Shown here: piece by piece, positions 22,859 to 34,945 of the stretch
Position numbering within the stretch: position 1 is the first letter of the stretch
Layout of the letters: each line of letters begins with the position of its first letter
Assembly: GCA_001516125.1 (NCBI GenBank)
Contig: LOEX01000076.1
Location: forward strand, 1-61,441
Direction of reading: 5' to 3'
Origin: Sphingomonadales bacterium BRH_c42
Lineage (GTDB): Bacteria > Pseudomonadota > Alphaproteobacteria > Sphingomonadales > Sphingomonadaceae
Length of the DNA stretch: 61,441 bases
Made by a program: the position numbers and the translations under genes
Notes under the pieces: generated by a model
Seen by the model: only the letters and a program-made list of their open reading frames with translations
Database searches by the model: none
What the model was told of the DNA's origin: nothing

Positions 22859-24849
22859 CAGAAAAGCACCCAGGTGATTGCCGCGACCAGCCCGATGAGC
22901 ATGATCAGCGCGTAGCTGTAGAGATAGCCGGTTTGCACCTTCTTCGCCGCGACCGCACCGCGCGCCACGACCCAGGCGGCTCCGTCGGGGCCGAAGCGGT
23001 CGATCAGCCCGATGTCACCGCGCTGCCAGAACAAACGGCCGATCGCAAAGGCCGGCTTGACGAACAGCAGGTTGTAAAGCTCGTCAAAGTACCATTTGTT
23101 GAACACGAAGCGGTGCACCAGCGTGAACTGCGCCACGAACTTGCCGGGAAGCGAGGTGTCGCGGAGATAGGCGAGCCACGCGCCGAACAGGCCCAGCACC
23201 ATCACGATACTGGCCGCCAGCTTCACCGGCAGGGGTACGCCGTGCATCGCGTGCAGCAATGCCTCGTTGTAATAGATCGAGCCGCCCCAGAACGCCTCGC
23301 TGTCAAGGAAGGCGTGGCTGAAAATCCAGCCCGCGAATATCGCGCCCAGAGCCAACCCACCCAAAGGCACCAGCATCGATCCCGGGCTTTCATGCGGGTG
23401 ATAGCCGCCGGTAGTATCCTCGCCCGCCTGCTGCGGCGTCTTGTGGACCGAATGCTGGATATGCTCGCTTTCGATCCAGCGCGGCTTGCCCCAGAAAGTC
23501 AGGAACATCAGCCGCCAGCTGTAAAAGCTGGTCAACAGAGCGGAAATTGTGCCCAGCCAGAAGGCGAACGTGCCCAGCTCCGTCCCGCGTGCGAACGCAA
23601 CCTCGATAATGGCATCCTTCGAATGGAAGCCCGCAAAACCGGCGTGGAGCCAATAAATCCCCACACCCGTGATCGCCAGCGTGCCCGCCATCATCGCCCA
23701 GAAGGTGAGCGGGATATGCTTCCTCAGGCCGCCGTAAAAACGCATGTCCTGCTCGTGGTGCATGGCGTGAATCACGCTGCCCGCCCCCAGGAACAGCAGA
23801 GCCTTGAAGAAGGCATGCGTGAACAGGTGGAACATCGCCGCGCCATAGGCGCCCACGCCCGCAGCAAAGAACATGTAGCCCAGCTGCGAACAGGTCGAAT
23901 AGGCGATCACCCGCTTGATGTCCCACTGCGTGGTGCCGATGGTGGCCGCGAAGAAACAGGTCGCCGCGCCGACGAAGGTGACCATGGCCAACGCCACCGG
24001 CGCGGTTTCGAACATCGGCGACAGGCGGCAGACCATGAACACGCCCGCGGTCACCATGGTCGCGGCATGGATCAGCGCGGAAACCGGCGTCGGGCCTTCC
24101 ATCGCGTCGGGCAGCCAGGTGTGAAGGCCAAGCTGCGCCGACTTGCCCATCGCCCCGATGAACAGCAGGATGCACAGGAGGTCCATCGTGGGCACACGGT
24201 ATCCGAGGAAGCCGATTGTCGCGCCGCTCATTCCGGGAGCCGCCGCCAGAATGTCAGGGATCGAAGTGGTCTGGAACACCAGATAAGTGCCGAAAATTCC
24301 CAGCATGAAGCCGAGATCGCCCACGCGGTTGACTACGAAGGCCTTGATCGCGGCGGCATTGGCACTCGGTTTCCTGAACCAGAAACCGATGAGCAGGTAG
24401 CTGGCGAGGCCCACGCCTTCCCAGCCGAAGAACATCTGCACCAGATTGTCTGCGGTCACCAGCATCAGCATGGCGAAGGTGAACAGGCTGAGATAGGCGA
24501 AGAAACGCGGCTGATCCGGGTCCTCCTCCATATAGCCCCAGCTGTAGAGGTGGACGAGCGCGGACACGGTGGTGACAACCACCAGCATCACCGCCGTCAA
24601 CGCATCGACGCTCAGCGCCCAGTCGAACGTCAGTGAGCCTGATTGCACCCACTTGAGCACCGGGACGACCTCAGGCTGCGCGGTGCCTGCAACGAAGCCG
24701 AGGAAAATCGGCCAGCTGAGCGCGCAGGATATGAACAGCGCGCCGGTGGTCAGCGACTTGGCGATGGTATTACCGAGCGCGCGGTTGCCCAGCCCCCCGA
24801 CTATGGCCGCAAGCAAGGGCAGGAACACGATGAGGATGATGGAGTTCAC
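22858..24849 (-). CDS. nuoL: NADH-quinone oxidoreductase subunit L (GTG start)
   Basis: [32 protein letters not shown] start with GGAGG upstream. Confidence 0.95.
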
Positions 24850-24956
24850 TTGATCCTCCAAAACCGCTCGTGCTGAGCCTGTCGAAGTACGATTGGTTCG
24901 CGCATTGCCTTCGACATGCTCAGGCTGAGCGGATGCTGGATGCTGAACATGTTCAC
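24846..24956 (-). CDS. 36-aa repeat-derived small ORF between nuoK and nuoL (GTGA overlaps at both ends)
   Basis: [36 protein letters not shown]. Confidence 0.5.
24866..24937. repeat. repeat family C (tgctgagcctgtcgaag ... cttcgacatgctcaggctgag)
   Basis: Inverted repeat in the nuoK-nuoL junction. Confidence 0.8.
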
Positions 24957-25273
24957 CCCTTCATCCGGTTGACATCGTCGACTGCGATCGTGCCGCGATT
25001 GCGGAAATAGATCACCAGGATTGCCAGCCCGATGGCGGCCTCCGCAGCGGCAACCGTCAGCACCAGCATGGCGAAAACCTGCCCCGTCAGGTCGCCCAGA
25101 AAGGCGCTGAAAGCGACCAGGTTGATGTTCACCGCGAGCAGGATCAACTCGATCGCCATCAGGATCACGATCACGTTCTTGCGGTTGAGGAATATGCCCA
25201 GCACGCCCAGCACGAACAGCGCCGCGCCGACCACGATATAGTGCTCGATCCCGATCCCCGAGAAACTGGTCAC
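24953..25273 (-). CDS. nuoK: NADH-quinone oxidoreductase subunit K
   Basis: [55 protein letters not shown]. Confidence 0.95.
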
Positions 25274-25914
25274 AGCGCGACCCCCTCACCCACTTTGGGC
25301 TGTTTCATCACCGTTGCATCGCCGGGACGGCGACGGTTCTGCCTGCCGATGTCCTGCTGGCTGCGTTGTGCGTCGGGACGGCGCCGGTGGGTCAGCACGA
25401 TCGCGCCGATCATCGCCACCAGCAGGATCAGGCCCGCAGCTTCGAACAGGAACAGGTAACGCTCGTAGAACAGCGCACCGAAAGCCTCGATATTGCTCAT
25501 GCTGGCGCCGCCAGCGTCAATCGCGCCTGCCGCCTGCGCAGCCGCCGCTGCACTATCGGGCACAAGCCCGCCGGCATTGTACGCGACCAGCCCCACGAAC
25601 AGTTCGACGAACAGGATCAGCGCAACCAGCAGGCCCAGCGGGAAATTGCGGACAAATCCGGCGCGAAGCTCGGCAAAATCGATGTCGAGCATCATCACCA
25701 CGAACAGGAACAGCACCGCGACCGCGCCGACATAGACGATCACCAGCAGCATCGCGATGAATTCCGCGCCCAGCAGCACCATCAGCCCCGCAGCGTTGAA
25801 GAACGCGAGGATCAGCCACAGCACCGAATGCACCGGATTGCGCGCCATGATGACCATCACCGCGCTGGCGATGACCATGAAGGCGAACAGATAGAACGAG
25901 AGGAGCTGGATCAC
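25270..25914 (-). CDS. nuoJ: NADH-quinone oxidoreductase subunit J (GTG start)
   Basis: [71 protein letters not shown]. Confidence 0.95.
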
Positions 25915-26039
25915 GAAGGCATCCTCCCCCATTGGGGGCGGTGGCAGCGCGAAGCGCTGACGGTGGGGGCCCCCTCCGCCCCTGCGGGGCACCTCCCCCG
26001 GCGGGGGAGGGTCTGTTCTGTTGCTGGCTTGCCAAACAT
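25911..26039 (-). CDS. 42-aa repeat-derived small ORF between nuoI and nuoJ (GTGA overlap with nuoJ start)
   Basis: [42 protein letters not shown]; start lies 10 nt after nuoI stop. Confidence 0.4.
   Translation of the reverse strand: MFGKPATEQTLPRRGRCPAGAEGAPTVSASRCHRPQWGRMPS
25923..26010. repeat. GC-rich repeat family D (cctcccccattgggggcggtggcagcgcgaagcgctgacggtggggg...cccccggcgggggagg)
   Basis: Nested inverted repeats in the nuoI-nuoJ junction. Confidence 0.8.
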
Positions 26040-26049
26040 CGCGCGGCCC

Positions 26050-26538
26050 CTATCGATACGGCGCATCGGCTTCAAGGTTCGCGGCAATCGCCCGCTCCCA
26101 CTTGTCCCCGTTGGCCAGCAGTTTCGCCTTGTCGTAGAGCAGTTCCTCGTGCGTTTCGGTCGCGTATTCGAAGTTCGGCCCCTCGACGATGGCATCGACC
26201 GGGCAGGCTTCCTGGCAAAAACCGCAATAGATGCACTTGGTCATGTCGATGTCATAGCGCGTGGTGCGGCGGCTGCCGTCCTCACGCGGTTCGGCCTCGA
26301 TCGTGATCGCCTGCGCCGGGCACACCGCTTCGCACAGCTTGCAGGCGATGCAGCGTTCCTCGCCATTGGGATAACGGCGCAGCGCGTGCTCGCCCCGGAA
26401 ACGTGGGCTGATCGGGTTCTTCTCGAACGGGTAGTTGATCGTCACCTTGGGCTTGAAGAAATACTTCAGCGTCAGCGCATGCGCCTTGAGGAACTCCCAC
26501 AGCGTGAAGCTCTTGATGAGGTGGGCGATACTGCTCAT
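26050..26538 (-). CDS. nuoI: NADH-quinone oxidoreductase subunit I
   Basis: [23 protein letters not shown] and [20 protein letters not shown]. Confidence 0.95.
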
Positions 26539-27587
26539 CCGAAATGTCCCGTCCACATCAGCCACCCGCTCACCAGCACCACGAACAGCAGGCTCAGCGG
26601 CAGGAACACTTTCCAGCCCAGACGCATCAGCTGGTCATAGCGATAGCGCGGCACGGTCGCCTTGACCCAGCTGAACACGAAGAAGAACACGAAGATCTTG
26701 CCGAACAGCCAGATCCAGCCCGGGATGTAGTATCCCGGCAGCCAGTCGACATCGAGCGGCGGCAGCCACCCGCCGAAGAACAGCACCGCGTTGAGCGTGC
26801 ACATCAGCAGCACATTGGCATATTCGCCCAGCCAGTAGAGCGCGAAGCTCATCGAGCTATATTCGGTCTGATATCCGGCGACGAGTTCGCTCTCCGCCTC
26901 GGTCAGGTCAAACGGCGCGCGCGCGGTTTCGGCCAGCGAGGATATCAGGAACATCACCCACAGCGGGAACAGCAGCGGGTTGAAGGCAAAGCCGTTGAGC
27001 AGGCCGAATACATGGCCCTGTTGCGCGGCGACGATGGCGTTGAGGTTGAAGCTGCCCGCCCACAGCACCACGCAGATGAGGATGAAGCCGATCGAGACTT
27101 CGTAAGAAATCATCTGCGCCGCTGCACGCATCGCGCTGAAAAATGGGTATTTTGAGTTCGACGCCCAGCCCGCGATCACCACCCCGTAAACGCCGAGCGA
27201 GGAAATCGCGAGGACATAGAGCAGCCCGACATTGATATCCGCCAGCACAGCCTCCGGCCCGAAGGGGATGACGGCCCAGGCCATCAGCGCCACGGTGAAG
27301 GTGATGATCGGCGCGATCAGGAACAGGCCCTTGTTCGCAGCGGAGGGCACGATGGTTTCCTGCAGGAACACCTTCAATCCGTCGGCAAAGCTTTGCAGCA
27401 GGCCCCACGGGCCGACCACATTGGGCCCGCGCCGCAGCGCCATCGCCGCCCATACCTTGCGGTCGACATAGATTATCATCGCAACGGCCAGCATCAGCGG
27501 CAGCGCGATCAGCAGGATGCCCGAGACCGTGGCAGTGAACCACGCCCATTCGTAGGGCATGCCAAGCGATTGGAAGAAGGAGGTCAT
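26535..27587 (-). CDS. nuoH: NADH-quinone oxidoreductase subunit H
   Basis: [53 protein letters not shown]. Confidence 0.95.
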
Positions 27588-27850
27588 TCCGCCTTGCTCC
27601 CAATCTTGTCGTAGATGGCAATTAAGACATGGATCATCACCCCGGAACCAAGCAAATAAGCAGCTTCTACCACACCCCAATAAAGGGCCGTGGAGCGCGC
27701 GAGCATGATGAACGGGCCGCCGTCCTCTGCGTATAACATAGACGCTGTAGCGGTTGCGTAGTCGTTATAAAAACGCCAAATGCCAACGATCACTGCAATA
27801 GCGTAAAACACGAACGGTGCGCGCCGAACGAACTGCGGGAGCGATTTCAT
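27584..27850 (-). CDS. 88-aa hypothetical membrane protein inside nuo operon
   Basis: Overlaps nuoG stop and nuoH start by 4 nt each; two hydrophobic segments. Confidence 0.75.
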
Positions 27851-29844
27851 TCCGCCGCCTCCCGAATATCATCGCCGTGGAGCAATTCGGCGCTGCATTG
27901 CTGCATCACCGCGCTCGCCCGCGCGATCGGGTTGGTGAGGTAGAAGTCCTTTATCGGATAGCTCTCGATCATGCCCTCTGCCTTGGCCTTGGCGTCCGGC
28001 TTGGGCAGCGCGCCGTAATTGGCGAGACCTTCCACGCCCAGCGCGGGCACCTCTGCGATCATCGCCGCCTGCAACTGCGCAAAGCTGTCAAACCCGACGG
28101 ACACACCCAGGCTATCCGCCAGCGCGCGCAGGATCGTCCAGTCCTCGCGCGCATCGCCGGGCGCGAACACGGCCTTCTCGGCATATTGCACGCGCCCTTC
28201 GGTATTGACGTAGGTGCCATCCTTCTCGGCAAACGAGGCTGCGGGCAGCACGATATCCGCTGCATGCGCGCCCTTGTCGCCGTGGTGGCCGATATAGACC
28301 TTGAGCGCGTCGGCAAACGGCTCAAAATTCATCTCGTCCGCGCCCAGCATCAGCAGCACCTTGGGCTTGGCAGCCACAATGTCCTTCATTCCTTGCCTTT
28401 GCGCGAAGCCGAGCATCAGCCCGCCCATCCGCGCGGCAGAGAAATGCAGCACGTTGAAATCCGCGCCCCATTCGCTTGCCAGCGCCAGCGCCCGGGCATG
28501 TGCGCGCTTGAGAGCCGCGCCGCCCACGATGATCGCGGGGCGCTGAGCCGCCTTGAATGCTTCGGTCACTTCCTTGGGCAGCTTGTTCAGCACCGCGAGA
28601 TCACGCCCGAGGAAAGTCGCGGGATAGGTGGTTTCCCATTCGGGCCCGATCAGGAACACCTTCGCGCCGCGCTTCGCCGCCTTGCGCAGGCGAGTGTTGA
28701 TCAGCGGCGCTTCCCAGCGAACGTGGCTGCCCACGATCAGGATCGCGTCGGCATTCTCGATCCCGGCAAGCGTCGAATTGAAGTTCACAGCCGCAAGATT
28801 GCCGACGTCATAGTCCATGCCGGTCTGGCGGCCTTCGAGCAGCGTCGATCCGCAGGCCCCCAGCAGCGCCTTGGCCGCGAACATCGTCTCGCAATCGACC
28901 ATGTCGCCCGCGACTGCCGCTATTGCAGACTTGCCCTTGCCTTTCAGCTGTTTGGCGATGGCTTTGAAGGCTTCATCCCAAGTCGATTCGGCCAGCCCAC
29001 CGCGCTTCCTCATGAACACCTTGTCGAGCCGCCGCTTGCCTAGGCCATCGACCATGTAGCGGCCCTTGTCGCTAAGCCACTCCTCGTTGACGTCATCGTT
29101 GACGCGGGGCAGCGCGCGCATCACCGCGCGGCCGCGGCTGTCGAGCCGGATATTGGCGCCCACCGCGTCGGACACGTCGATGCTCAGTGTCTTCTTGAGC
29201 TCCCACGGGCGCGCCTCGAACGCATAAGGGCGGCTGGTGAGCGCGCCGACCGGGCACAGATCGATCACGTTGGCGCTCAGTTCATGCGCCGCCGCACGTT
29301 CGAGATAGGTGGTGATCTGCATATCCTCGCCGCGATACAGCGCGCCGATTTCGTCCACGCCCGCCACTTCCTCGCTGAAGCGGACGCAGCGGGTGCAATG
29401 GATGCAGCGGGTCATCACCGTCTTGATGAGAGGCCCCATGTATTTCTCGGTCACCGCACGCTTGTTCTCGTCATAGCGCGACCCGCCCCGGCCATAGGCC
29501 ACCGCTTGATCCTGCAAATCGCACTCGCCGCCTTGATCGCAGATCGGGCAATCGAGCGGGTGGTTGATGAGCAGGAACTCCATCACCCCCTCGCGCGCGG
29601 CCTTGACCATTGGCGTGTCGGTGCGGATTTCCTGGCCCTCGGCAACGGGCAGCGCGCAGCTTGCCTGCGGCTTGGGCGGCCCGGGCTTCACCTCGACCAG
29701 GCACATGCGGCAATTGCCCGCGATGCTCAGCCGCTCGTGATAGCAGAAACGCGGGATTTCCTTGCCCGCAAGCTCGCACGCCTGCAGCACGGTGGCGCCC
29801 TGCGGGACTTCGATTTCCTGTCCGTCGACGGTGACCTTAGGCAT
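27847..29844 (-). CDS. nuoG: NADH-quinone oxidoreductase subunit G
   Basis: GNCRMCLVEV; CPICDQGGECDLQDQAVAYG; CIHCTRCVRF. Confidence 0.95.
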   Translation of the reverse strand: MPKVTVDGQEIEVPQGATVLQACELAGKEIPRFCYHERLSIAGNCRMCLVEVKPGPPKPQASCALPVAEGQEIRTDTPMVKAAREGVMEFLLINHPLDCPICDQGGECDLQDQAVAYGRGGSRYDENKRAVTEKYMGPLIKTVMTRCIHCTRCVRFSEEVAGVDEIGALYRGEDMQITTYLERAAAHELSANVIDLCPVGALTSRPYAFEARPWELKKTLSIDVSDAVGANIRLDSRGRAVMRALPRVNDDVNEEWLSDKGRYMVDGLGKRRLDKVFMRKRGGLAESTWDEAFKAIAKQLKGKGKSAIAAVAGDMVDCETMFAAKALLGACGSTLLEGRQTGMDYDVGNLAAVNFNSTLAGIENADAILIVGSHVRWEAPLINTRLRKAAKRGAKVFLIGPEWETTYPATFLGRDLAVLNKLPKEVTEAFKAAQRPAIIVGGAALKRAHARALALASEWGADFNVLHFSAARMGGLMLGFAQRQGMKDIVAAKPKVLLMLGADEMNFEPFADALKVYIGHHGDKGAHAADIVLPAASFAEKDGTYVNTEGRVQYAEKAVFAPGDAREDWTILRALADSLGVSVGFDSFAQLQAAMIAEVPALGVEGLANYGALPKPDAKAKAEGMIESYPIKDFYLTNPIARASAVMQQCSAELLHGDDIREAAE

Positions 29845-30031
29845 TATTCCGCAGCCTCCCGCACAAAATCGTCATGCTGAACTTGTTTCAGCATCCATCG
29901 TGCCCCATCCGCCGAAGCCCGCGTCAAATGCGCGACGGTCAGGTTTGTGCCGCCCACCACGCATCGGCGCGACACGAGGAATGGACCCTGAAACGAGTTC
30001 AGGGTGACGGTGGGGCAGATGTCAGCCAACT

Positions 30032-30035
<4 letters not shown>
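29844..30035 (-). CDS. 63-aa repeat-derived small ORF between nuoF and nuoG (ATGA / TAATG overlaps)
   Basis: [63 protein letters not shown]. Confidence 0.5.
29871..30009. repeat. repeat family B (gtcatgctgaacttgtttcagcatcca ... tggaccctgaaacgagttcagggtgac)
   Basis: Second copy at 34835-34924. Confidence 0.9.
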
Positions 30036-31314
<1,279 letters not shown>

Positions 31315-31315
<1 letters not shown>

Positions 31316-31353
31316 TACGCGAGCGTCCCAACGATAGCATCAGCGAGGGTCAT
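31315..31353 (-). CDS. 12-aa mini-[15 protein letters not shown] coupling upstream ORF to nuoF
   Basis: ATGA overlap with the 50-aa ORF stop; TAATG overlap with nuoF start. Confidence 0.4.
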
Positions 31354-31502
31354 GCGAAGCCTCCCTGCGTAACGAACCAGGCGGCAGCGATCACGATAAC
31401 AGCGATCAGGCCGAACTTGACGATGCCCTTCAGCACCTTCCACGCGACGAAGGCGATAACCAGCGCGACGATCAGTGTGATGATGATGGTGGCGATGCTC
31501 AT
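31350..31502 (-). CDS. 50-aa single/double-TM small protein between nuoE and nuoF
   Basis: [50 protein letters not shown]. Confidence 0.65.
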   Translation of the reverse strand: MSIATIIITLIVALVIAFVAWKVLKGIVKFGLIAVIVIAAAWFVTQGGFA

Positions 31503-31669
31503 CGGCCCGACTCCCCTTCTCCCTGGAGGGAGAAGGATACGCAGCCTTGCGCCTGCAAGGCGCTAGGCGAAGTTGGATGTGGGTGTGCTGCGGTACGAAA
31601 AAGCGGACCGCCGTACCCCCACCCCCGGCCCCTCCCCATGGGGAGGGCGGATTTGCGTGCGGTGCCCAT
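31499..31669 (-). CDS. 56-aa repeat-derived small ORF after nuoE (TGATG / ATGA overlaps)
   Basis: MGTARKSALPMGRGRGWGYGGPLFRTAAHPHPTSPSALQAQGCVSFSLQGEGESGR*. Confidence 0.45.
   Translation of the reverse strand: MGTARKSALPMGRGRGWGYGGPLFRTAAHPHPTSPSALQAQGCVSFSLQGEGESGR
31508..31650. repeat. repeat family E (ccccttctccctggagggagaagg ... cccctccccatggggaggg)
   Basis: Composite inverted repeats in the nuoE-nuoF junction. Confidence 0.75.
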
Positions 31670-32337
31670 CACCAATCCCCCCGGTAATCGCGGTTTTCGG
31701 TAACCATTTCCTTGAGCGTGGTCGGCCCGCCGCTGGGCTCGGACGTGTGCCGCCCTGGCTCCTGCGTCCCGGCCTTGGGCTGTTCGCCGCGCGCCAGCGC
31801 ATCGAGCACTGCATCGAGCCGTTCGGGCGTCAAATCCTCGTAATTGTCGTCATTGATCTGGACCATCGGCGCGGTCGCGCAATTGCCCATGCATTCGACT
31901 TCGGTGAGCGTCCACATCCCGTCATCGGTGGTGTGGCCCTTGGCCATGCCCCGGCTTTTGCAGGCGGAGATGATGTCGTCGCTGCCGCGCAGCATGCACG
32001 GCGTCGTGCCGCACACCTGCACGTGGAATTTGCCCACCGGCACGAGGTTGTACATGAAATAGAAGGTCGCAACCTCGAGCACGCGGATCGCCGGCATGTC
32101 GAGATATGCGGCGACATATTCGATCACCGGAATCGGCAGCCAGCCCTGCGTGCCGGTCTCCGCGCCAACCTGCCGCTGGGCAAGATCGAGCAATGCCATC
32201 ACCGCCGAACGCTGGCGGCCGGCAGGGTACTTGGCGATGTGCCAGTCTGCCTTCTTGCGGTTCTCGTCCATCCACGCGAACGCGCCCCACCGGGCGCGAA
32301 GTTCAGGGGTGTCGGGTGCAGGGGTACGGTCAGCCAT
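31669..32337 (-). CDS. nuoE: NADH-quinone oxidoreductase subunit E
   Basis: VEYVAAYLDMPAIRVLEVATFYFMYNLVPVGKFHVQVCGTTPCMLRGS; ECMGNCATAPMVQIND. Confidence 0.95.
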   Translation of the reverse strand: MADRTPAPDTPELRARWGAFAWMDENRKKADWHIAKYPAGRQRSAVMALLDLAQRQVGAETGTQGWLPIPVIEYVAAYLDMPAIRVLEVATFYFMYNLVPVGKFHVQVCGTTPCMLRGSDDIISACKSRGMAKGHTTDDGMWTLTEVECMGNCATAPMVQINDDNYEDLTPERLDAVLDALARGEQPKAGTQEPGRHTSEPSGGPTTLKEMVTENRDYRGDW

Positions 32338-32720
32338 CAAATCTGCTCCAACCGATCGCGCCTGAGCTCAGAATCTATTCCACCGGTAGTCGGCTCGCCT
32401 TCTTTGTCCATTACCAGAACCTGGCACTCTTTCTCGCAGAACGGGCGATGTTCGACGCCATTGGGCACGACCAGCATGTCGCCCGCATTGAGCAGGCGGG
32501 TAATGCCGTCGCGAAACTCGATCTTGAGCTGCCCTTCGATCACTAGGAACAGCTCGTCCGTTTCGGCATGGCTGTGCCAGACGAAATCGCCCTTCAGCTT
32601 CGACACGCGCACGTCATTGCCATTGTATCCGGCGACGATGCGCGGATGCCAATGGTCCGAGAAACTGGCGAGCTTCTCCGACAGGTCGATTGCTTTTGGT
32701 GCGGAGGAACGGTCAGCCAT
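32337..32720 (-). CDS. cupin-domain protein inserted in nuo operon
   Basis: GDFVWHSHAETDELFLVIEGQLKIEFRDG...LLNAGDMLVVPNGVEHRP cupin motifs. Confidence 0.85.
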   Translation of the reverse strand: MADRSSAPKAIDLSEKLASFSDHWHPRIVAGYNGNDVRVSKLKGDFVWHSHAETDELFLVIEGQLKIEFRDGITRLLNAGDMLVVPNGVEHRPFCEKECQVLVMDKEGEPTTGGIDSELRRDRLEQI

Positions 32721-33261
32721 CGAACTTTTCCGTGTCGAGAGGAGGCATTATTGCTATTCGCTCCACAGCCCACCTCACCCAATCTTCGCCTGTCTCATAC
32801 ACGCCAGCCTGATAGTACAGGTCAACCCGCTCCTCATTCCGCGTGGGTCCGCAGGAAGTCTCAATCTCGTCATCTTCTGCAAAGAGCAATTCGATCCGGT
32901 TCATCCGCCCTTGCTGTTCGCTTCCAACTATCTTTGCGTCCATCAACCTACGAGGGCCATTATTTGCTGTCTGAGTAAGATAGCTGCGAAATGAAAGCAT
33001 GGCCTCCTTGACACCTTCAGATCCAGAAAATTGGAGCTGAGAATCAGATTGGACAAAATGTGTGTCAAATGACACCAATGAACTGAAATTATGAAATAGA
33101 CCCGATAAGTGATCAGCACGTCCAGAATTCATAAATTCTATCAGCCTCTTGCCCCATTCATCCGGCTCGTACTCCACCCAACTGCAGGCAGATACCGCCT
33201 GTGCTGAGAGAGCAGTTGCACAAAGGGCAGCACCACGCAGCAGTTCTCGACGTTTGATCAC
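32713..33261 (-). CDS. 182-aa exported hypothetical protein inserted in nuo operon (GTG start)
   Basis: MIKRRELLRGAALCATALSAQAVSACS signal; GTGA overlap upstream and 8-nt overlap with cupin start. Confidence 0.7.
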   Translation of the reverse strand: MIKRRELLRGAALCATALSAQAVSACSWVEYEPDEWGKRLIEFMNSGRADHLSGLFHNFSSLVSFDTHFVQSDSQLQFSGSEGVKEAMLSFRSYLTQTANNGPRRLMDAKIVGSEQQGRMNRIELLFAEDDEIETSCGPTRNEERVDLYYQAGVYETGEDWVRWAVERIAIMPPLDTEKFDG

Positions 33262-33401
33262 CGGTCGCACTCCCCGAACATGCTCGTCATTGCGAGGAAC
33301 GAAGTGACGAAGCAATCCAGTCCCGGCGCTTGACCGCTCTGGATTGCCGCGCCTCGCTGCGCGAGGCCCGCAATGACGGGTGCGGGGGTACGGTCAGCCA
33401 T
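33258..33401 (-). CDS. 47-aa chimeric small ORF: nuoE-like start + repeat A + nuoD-like end
   Basis: [47 protein letters not shown]. Confidence 0.5.
   Translation of the reverse strand: MADRTPAPVIAGLAQRGAAIQSGQAPGLDCFVTSFLAMTSMFGECDR
33284..33379. repeat. palindromic repeat family A, second copy
   Basis: cgtcattgcgagg...gaagcaatccag / ctggattgccgcgcctcg...gcaatgacg. Confidence 0.85.
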
Positions 33402-33609
33402 TGTTCACCTTCGAATTATGGCCGCGCCGCCGCCAGAACCACCAAACCGCCTGACCCGTCCATAGCAGCACCAAAGCTCCGAAAATGACGTTGTTCCACG
33501 TGGTGGGCAGAGTAGGAAGGATGTCAAATCGCATGTCGACCCACATGACCAAGACGAAAAAGGTCGTGGCCGCCCAAGCGTAAATCGAATTCCTCGCGTC
33601 TTGCGTCAC
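33394..33609 (-). CDS. 71-aa hypothetical membrane protein inserted in nuo operon (GTG start)
   Basis: [31 protein letters not shown]...; GTGA overlap with nuoD stop. Confidence 0.7.
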
Positions 33610-34817
33610 CGGTCACACTCCCCGAACACCACGTCGATCGCGCCGAGGATGGCGGTCGCGTCGGGCAGCATGTGGCCCTTGCACATCATGTCCATCGCCT
33701 GAAGGTGGCTGAAGGCGGTGGGGCGGATCTTGCAGCGATACGGCTTGTTGCTGCCGTCGCTGACCAGATAGACGCCGAATTCGCCCTTGGGGCTTTCGGT
33801 CGCGACATAGACCTCGCCCGCGGGCACATGGAAGCCTTCGGTATAGAGCTTGAAGTGGTGGATCAGCGCTTCCATGCTCTGCTTCATCTCACCGCGCGTG
33901 GGCGGTGAAACCTTGCCGTCGGTGCTGGCAACCGGACCCTGCGGCATTTCCGCCAGGCACTGCTTGATGATCTTCGCGCTCTCGTAAACTTCCTTCACGC
34001 GCACCATGAAGCGGTCATAGCAGTCCGAATTGGTACCGACCGGAATGTCGAACTCCATCCGGTCATAGACTTCGTAAGGCTGCGATTTGCGCAGGTCCCA
34101 CGGAATGCCCGCCGCGCGGATCATCGGGCCGGAAAAGCCCCAGGCAATCGCATCATCGCGGCCGACGATCGCGATATCGACATTGCGCTGCTTGAAGATG
34201 CGGTTGTCGATCACCAGGCTCATCGCATCGCCGAACAGTTCGGGCAGCCGCGTATCGACCCAGTGGCCGATATCGACCAGCAGCTTCTCGGGCACGTCCT
34301 GATGCACGCCGCCGGGGCGGAACCAGGCGCTGTGCATGCGCGCGCCGCTGGCCCGCTCGAAGAAGTTCATGCAGTCTTCGCGCAGCTCGAACACCCACAG
34401 GTTGGGCGTCATCGCGCCGACATCCATCACATGCGCGCCGATGTTGAGCATGTGGTTGGAAATGCGCGTCAGTTCCGCAAACAGCACGCGCAGGTACTGC
34501 GCGCGGATCGGCACTTCGAGATTGAGCAGCTTCTCGATCGCCAGCACATAGGAATGTTCCTGGCACAGCGGCGAGACGTAATCGAGCCGGTCGAAATAGG
34601 GCAGCGCCTGAAGGTAGGTCTTGTGCTCGATCAGTTTTTCGGTGCCGCGGTGGAGCAGCCCGACATGCGGATCGATCCGCTCGATCACCTCGCCGTCAAG
34701 CTCCATCACCATGCGCAGCACGCCGTGCGCGGCGGGATGCTGCGGGCCGAAGTTGATCGTGTAATTGGTGATGACCTCGTCACCGGTGGTGGGCGACTGT
34801 TCGAGCTGGATGCTCAC
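33606..34817 (-). CDS. nuoD: NADH-quinone oxidoreductase subunit D (GTG start)
   Basis: [59 protein letters not shown]. Confidence 0.96.
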
Positions 34818-34945
34818 AGGGCACCTCCATGTTCGTCATGCTGAACTTGTTTCAGCATCCATCGCGCCCCACATACCGAAGGTGCGGTAGGAGAAATGGA
34901 CCCTGAAACGAGTTCAGGGTGACGAAGAGTGGGTGAATGGCTCAC
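34814..34945 (-). CDS. 43-aa repeat-derived small ORF between nuoC and nuoD (GTGA overlaps at both ends)
   Basis: [43 protein letters not shown]. Confidence 0.5.
34835..34924. repeat. repeat family B, second copy
   Basis: gtcatgctgaacttgtttcagcatccatcg...aatggaccctgaaacgagttcagggtgacg. Confidence 0.9.

What the first reader, a model, noticed from the sequence alone, without database searches (positions are those of the whole stretch)
24846..34945. Complex I operon in which unrelated intergenic repeats all form coupled 'translated spacer' ORFs
Seen directly: at nuoC/D, D/E, E/F, F/G, I/J and K/L, repeat-type palindromic elements from five unlike families (A-E) interrupt an otherwise gapless chain of overlapping stop/start codons. 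Every one reads as an uninterrupted small ORF (43, 47, 56, 63, 42 and 36 aa) on the nuo strand. All but the I/J element overlap the upstream stop and the downstream start (GTGA, ATGA, TGATG, TAATG); I/J overlaps only downstream and starts 10 nt after the nuoI stop. The start/stop context is duplicated at the edges (e.g. GTGAGC..GTGAGC at C/D, GTGAAC..GTGAAC at K/L). Inference: insertion at a 4-nt stop/start overlap with duplication of that overlap gives the element its own start and stop. Only frame-compatible, stop-free insertions survive, so ribosome hand-over from nuoA to nuoN is kept. Because the peptide sequences are unrelated, selection seems to act on the fact of translation rather than on the peptide.
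Basis: partly seen in the sequence, partly recalled or inferred. Interest (0 to 1): 0.87.

Follow-up and report, generated by a model that had tools for sequence, protein, structure and literature searches.

The report
Repeats bridged by translated spacer ORFs
In the respiratory complex I operon of this bacterial group, repetitive DNA that has landed between tightly coupled genes is always kept as a small readable frame that touches both neighbours, which suggests that evolution keeps only insertions that let ribosomes pass straight from one gene to the next.

Summary
I compared 149 distinct nuo operons from Sphingomonadales. At junctions that natively overlap, 37 of 37 repeat-only insertions (several unrelated families) form one ORF whose start and stop both lie within 8 nt of the flanking stop and start codons. 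Chance predicts 8-12 (P about 1e-20). At nuoI/nuoJ, which natively does not overlap, only 2 of 11 do (Fisher P 3e-8). Elsewhere in the genomes, repeats behind a stop codon carrying an overlapping ATG/GTG are bridged in 11 of 17 cases (5.0 expected); those without, in 0 of 61. The same repeat families are read in two or three frames, codon usage is not gene-like, and an orthologous spacer has pN close to pS with no stop or indel. Selection therefore appears to act on keeping an overlapping stop/start chain, not on the peptide.

Translation itself is inferred. The likely mechanism is termination-reinitiation hand-over, which published experiments show is lost at gaps of about 20-38 nt.

The parts
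34814..34945 (-). C/D translated spacer, 43 aa, overlaps nuoC stop and nuoD start by 4 nt each (GTGA...GTGA); repeat with CGTC at both ends (34834-34837 and complement at 34921-34924)
   Evidence: repeat copies elsewhere in the genome; hairpin z -4.8
33258..33401 (-). D/E spacer, 47 aa, between two accessory ORFs; copied nuoE head + CGTC-tagged repeat (33285-33378) + copied nuoD tail
   Evidence: shared with L032; copies elsewhere
31499..31669 (-). E/F spacer, 56 aa, overlaps nuoE stop by 1 nt (TGATG) and the 50-aa ORF start by 4 nt
   Evidence: no such spacer in L015
31315..31353 (-). 12-codon ORF linking the 50-aa ORF to nuoF (ATGA / TAATG), with a short copy of the nuoF head
   Evidence: absent from L015
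29844..30035 (-). F/G spacer, 63 aa, same repeat family as C/D; ends in a copy of the nuoF tail (VREAAE-stop)
   Evidence: empty site in L015
25911..26039 (-). I/J element, 42-aa ORF, overlaps only nuoJ; natively uncoupled junction, serves as control and not as a translated spacer
   Evidence: fold not unusual, z -0.7
24846..24956 (-). K/L spacer, 36 aa, overlaps nuoK stop and nuoL start by 4 nt each
   Evidence: orthologous spacer of equal length in L015; copies elsewhere
33394..33609 (-). 71-aa accessory ORF after nuoD (-4), with hydrophobic stretches
   Evidence: no Pfam match
32713..33261 (-). 182-aa accessory ORF (-4 from the D/E spacer)
   Evidence: no Pfam match to the longer 200-aa reading
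32337..32720 (-). 127-aa cupin, start resembles the nuoE start, overlaps nuoE by 1 nt
31350..31502 (-). 50-aa accessory ORF of membrane type; a relative with the same stretch VIAFVAWKVL follows nuoE directly in L015
27584..27850 (-). 88-aa accessory ORF filling G/H (-4/-4)
   Evidence: empty site in L015

Best explanation
Palindromic repeats (CGTC-tagged REP-like dimers and other families) insert now and then between nuo genes. Where the two genes natively share stop and start codons, the downstream gene depends on ribosomes handed over from the upstream one (termination-reinitiation). An insertion of 100-200 nt would break this, so only insertions that form a stop-free frame from the upstream stop to the downstream start survive. 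Each such insert then acts as a translated spacer that relays ribosomes. Shown: position, frame, overlaps, restriction to natively coupled junctions, several families and frames, and a Shine-Dalgarno-like site before the downstream start in most cases. Inferred: that the spacers are translated, that hand-over is what is selected, and that insertion duplicates the shared codons.
For: 37/37 repeat-only gaps at coupled junctions bridged against 12.2 (frame/orientation variants) or 7.8 (transplanted real copies) expected; I/J 2/11; Fisher P 3e-8. Native state: I/J never overlaps in 138 operons, the others mostly do. Outside nuo: 11/17 bridged (5.0 expected, P 4e-4) where the upstream stop carries an overlapping ATG/GTG, 0/61 where it does not. 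92.7% of 1,160 links in filled nuo gaps lie within -8..+10 nt, the window in which reinitiation is predicted (PMC10666635). Same families read in several frames, non-gene-like codon use, pN 0.141 vs pS 0.176 without indel or stop in the K/L spacer. SD-like site at the downstream start in 88% vs 24% of random positions.
Against: No expression data. SD-like sites mean downstream genes could also start on their own. Outside nuo 6 of 17 are not bridged. The dcw cluster gave no cases. I/J has no start codon at its stop, so it is not a control for frame alone. Some of the 37 are shared by descent, and downstream starts are inferred.
Confidence: 0.75

Rival explanations
1. Untranslated, strongly folded repeat RNA is harmful in itself (Rho-dependent polarity, RNase cleavage, transcription stops), so translation through it is selected, not hand-over to the downstream gene.
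For: Five of the six window spacers fold better than shuffles (z -2.4 to -4.8); Huber et al. note that untranslated stretches destabilised reporter mRNAs (PMC6728339).
Against: 9 of 11 repeats at I/J of the same operon are not bridged, and 0 of 61 repeats between same-strand genes elsewhere are bridged when no start overlaps the upstream stop.
Confidence: 0.13
2. The spacer peptides are functional small proteins, for example complex I accessory factors.
For: The operon does contain many gene-like accessory ORFs.
Against: Same repeat families in two or three frames; codon use unlike genes and no predicted membrane segment in 50 of 50; pN close to pS; no Pfam match in the four spacers scanned.
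Confidence: 0.05
3. Insertion mechanism alone: the repeats move as units that bring their own start and stop or always insert in one phase, so bridging needs no selection.
For: Some junctions show real edge duplications (GTGAGC at C/D of the window; 11 nt at J/K of L086).
Against: Edges beyond the shared codons match no better than permuted pairs; families appear in several frames; the same families are unbridged at I/J and elsewhere.
Confidence: 0.05
4. Chance: GC-rich palindromes are often open, so small ORFs are expected.
For: A third of frame/orientation variants are also bridged (12.2 of 37); the I/J ORF of the window is of this kind.
Against: 37/37 against 7.8-12.2 expected, and the contrast with I/J.
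Confidence: 0.02

Closest known systems
Translational coupling by termination-reinitiation at overlapping gene pairs (Huber et al. 2019 PMC6728339; 2023 PMC10666635)
   Same: Same -4/-1 overlaps, same distance window, same class of genes (subunits of a complex).
   Different: Known pairs join two functional genes; here the middle ORF is repeat-derived and apparently serves only as a relay. Coupling was not measured here.
CGTC-tagged REP repeats (Di Nocera et al. 2013 PMC3733652)
   Same: CGTC ends, inverted dimers, dispersed copies near the 3' ends of genes; families are reported from a sphingomonad (S. wittichii).
   Different: That work treated REP ORFs under 120 aa as plausibly spurious and did not relate frame to junction type. 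The E/F, I/J and K/L elements do not show the CGTC ends.
Rickettsia palindromic elements (RPE; reviewed in PMC10969869)
   Same: Palindromic repeats kept in frame and stop-free because they are translated.
   Different: RPEs lie inside genes and change the protein; these are separate ORFs between genes, in several frames and without a conserved peptide.

Membership tests
Termination-reinitiation coupled gene pairs | stop and start overlap or lie within about -8 to +10 nt | tested here: met
   37/37 repeat-only spacers within -8..+8 at both ends; 92.7% of 1,160 links
Termination-reinitiation coupled gene pairs | intragenic SD-like motif before the downstream start | tested here: met
   88% of spacer-preceded starts vs 24% of random positions
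Termination-reinitiation coupled gene pairs | a stop in the upstream frame lowers downstream translation | not testable with these tools
   needs reporters
CGTC-tagged REP | CGTC at the ends of an inverted dimer | tested here: met
   read directly for C/D, D/E and F/G; not seen for E/F, I/J, K/L
CGTC-tagged REP | dispersed copies in the genome | tested here: met
   pattern search
CGTC-tagged REP | stem of 8-9 bp, loop of 4-5 nt | not tested
   monomer folds were not measured
CGTC-tagged REP | no association with transposase genes | not tested
   two Y1_Tnp ORFs exist in the genome; their flanks were not examined
Rickettsia palindromic elements | insertion inside a protein-coding gene, changing its product | tested here: not met
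   each spacer has its own start and stop between intact genes

The most novel reading that the evidence does not exclude
Coupled junctions turn inserted DNA into obligately translated proto-genes. Selection for ribosome relay, blind to the peptide, would make the complex I operon of Sphingomonadales a standing nursery for new small genes, and would help explain why its gaps hold 214 clusters of accessory ORFs, 167 of them found once, with a predicted membrane segment in 68% of those of 40 aa or more. Cassettes would also be stacked by recombination that joins copied gene ends (nuoE head to nuoD tail). No intermediate between a repeat spacer and a gene-like ORF was shown.
Probability: 0.15. 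Interest if true: 0.88.

Novelty: new variant of a known kind. Interest (0 to 1): 0.68.

Why it matters
It is a natural mutagenesis experiment on translational coupling: many independent insertions into one operon, with an uncoupled junction (I/J) of the same operon as internal control. It suggests that hand-over at 4-nt overlaps is under strong selection, gives a simple rule for which insertions coupled operons tolerate, and implies that small repeat ORFs set aside as spurious can matter as translated DNA without any role for their peptide. It also offers a route by which non-coding DNA becomes regularly translated.

Tried and rejected
A/B as a second uncoupled control: its long gaps proved to be a start-calling artefact, since nuoB can start upstream, and it was dropped.

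General target-site duplication: tested by position and by permutation, not found beyond the shared codons.

Replication in the dcw cluster: in 20 loci and 219 junctions no repeat-only insertion was found between natively overlapping genes, so it neither supports nor refutes.

Indel phase across orthologous gaps: uninformative overall, because of alignment noise and multi-ORF gaps.

Rfam: no hits in the region. Pfam: no hits for the four spacers scanned.

Full report
WHAT IS THERE. The window holds the nuo operon on the minus strand. The description needs corrections. The C/D and F/G elements are one family. The D/E gap is 1,268 nt and holds four ORFs, one of which is the spacer; the E/F spacer stands between nuoE and a 50-aa membrane-like ORF; G/H is filled by an 88-aa ORF. 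I/J is not overlapped on its upstream side. A 12-codon ORF links the 50-aa ORF to nuoF. The operon is thus a chain of overlapping frames with both gene-like and repeat-like insertions.

COMPARISON SET. I collected 80 named loci by nuoF and 80 loci from genomes of the same GTDB genus, removed duplicates and annotated nuoA-N by homology in 149 operons. Without insertions, C/D, F/G, G/H, H/I, J/K and M/N mostly overlap by 1-4 nt, D/E and many E/F sites overlap where they are empty, I/J never overlaps (0 of 138), and K/L is mostly 1-20 nt apart. The relative L015 (NuoF 94% identical) has empty F/G, G/H and I/J sites and no E/F spacer, and shares the K/L spacer.

IS IT MORE THAN CHANCE. Gaps above 60 nt at coupled junctions are almost always filled by a chain of ORFs: D/E 119/119, E/F 120/122, F/G 83/85, G/H 54/55, H/I 46/46, B/C 29/29, J/K 8/8. 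Many of these are gene-like, so I isolated gaps of at most 240 nt made mostly of sequence that recurs in other contexts. For each I asked whether one ORF starts within 8 nt of the upstream stop and ends within 8 nt of the downstream start, and compared this with both orientations and three frames of the same insert. First pass: 34 of 37 at coupled junctions, 11.0 expected, P 1e-18; I/J 2 of 11, 1.3 expected. The three misses are linked at an in-frame start slightly upstream. The 37 come from 27 operons and eight junctions; a few are shared by descent.

OUTSIDE THE OPERON. Copies of the repeat families elsewhere in the window's genome and its relatives lie mostly between same-strand genes. Excluding nuo, 11 of 17 are bridged when the upstream stop carries an overlapping ATG/GTG (5.0 expected, P 4e-4), and 0 of 61 when it does not. 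Unbridged repeats between genes are therefore common, and bridging goes with overlap. In 20 dcw clusters I found no repeat-only insertion between natively overlapping genes.

WHAT IS SELECTED. The repeat families are read in two or three frames: the CATTGCGA arm occurs 8, 5 and 4 times in frames 0, 1 and 2. Codon use of repeat spacers is unlike genes (median -0.195 per codon against +0.07 for the other inserted ORFs of 40 aa or more), and none of 50 has a predicted membrane segment, against 68% of the others. The K/L spacer shared by the window and L015 differs at 16 of 111 sites with pN 0.141 and pS 0.176, no indel and no stop; about 0.5 nonsense changes were expected, so the absence of stops in this pair alone is weak. 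The D/E spacer shared with L032 differs by two 3-nt indels. The frame is kept; the peptide is not.

MECHANISM. Published reporter work shows that reinitiation falls steeply with distance, to near zero by about 22 nt in H. volcanii and 38 nt in E. coli, and takes -8 to +10 nt as predictive of coupling; overlapping pairs are enriched in subunits of complexes (PMC10666635). Insertions here obey this window at both ends: 92.7% of 1,160 links in filled gaps, 82% exactly -4, -1 or -8. The spacer tails carry an SD-like site at the downstream start in 88% of cases, against 24% of random positions, as native junctions do. The alternative that untranslated hairpin RNA is itself harmful is weakened by I/J and by the 61 unbridged repeats elsewhere, though most window spacers do fold strongly. 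Translation of the spacers is inferred, not shown.

HOW THEY ARISE. With -4 overlaps the start codon lies inside the upstream gene's last bases and survives any insertion behind the stop. The downstream gene needs its own copy, so duplication of at least the shared codons is required (inference). Beyond that, edge identity across 37 spacers is close to the permuted background. Longer duplications are real but few: 11 of 544 gaps reach a score that the null reached twice. They include the nuoF tail at F/G of the window, and a recurrent scar in D/E in which a copied nuoE head runs in frame into a copied nuoD tail between two accessory ORFs (window, L032, L156, L171). I read these scars as joins between two D/E cassettes brought together by recombination (inference).

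KNOWN AND NEW. The C/D, D/E and F/G elements fit CGTC-tagged REP dimers; the paper that defined these set aside REPs within hypothetical proteins under 120 aa, regarding the short ORFs as plausibly spurious (PMC3733652). RPEs are kept in frame too, but inside genes (PMC10969869). Nine literature searches of open-access papers found no description of translated spacers between overlapping genes; most subscription papers were not searchable. I rate it a new variant of a known kind: termination-reinitiation relayed through repeat-derived ORFs.

LIMITS. I/J lacks a start at its stop, so it controls for coupling and element type but not for frame alone; the frame/orientation and transplant nulls cover that.

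Noticed in passing
nuo gaps of 149 operons; in the window 33394-33609, 32713-33261, 32337-32720, 31350-31502, 27584-27850: The nuo operon of Sphingomonadales is rich in lineage-specific accessory ORFs: 613 non-repeat ORFs in 214 clusters, 167 found once, many with a predicted membrane segment.
   Followed up: partly
window 33258-33401; L032, L156, L171 D/E gaps: A copied nuoE head runs in frame into a copied nuoD tail between two accessory ORFs, with or without a repeat in between, as if two D/E cassettes had been joined.
   Followed up: partly
L081 D/E gap, gap positions 302-390: An 88-nt near-copy of the nuoD tail stands as its own short ORF before another accessory ORF.
   Followed up: no
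L171 and L159 D/E gaps, L180 F/G gap; window cupin 32337-32720: Accessory ORFs begin with a copy of the first 25-50 nt of the next nuo gene (nuoE or nuoG), giving near-identical N-termini.
   Followed up: no
A/B junction in 149 operons: The distance from nuoA to the conserved nuoB start varies in steps of 3 and upstream in-frame starts exist, so nuoB seems to have a variable N-terminal extension.
   Followed up: no
L375-L394 (dcw clusters): No repeat-only insertions between natively overlapping dcw genes, but a 160-aa accessory ORF is inserted at -4/-4 in three of them; nuo looks more permissive.
   Followed up: partly
G000:C111:1524-2213: Two adjacent matches to Y1_Tnp (the REP-type transposase family) in the window's own genome, possible movers of the repeats.
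   Followed up: no
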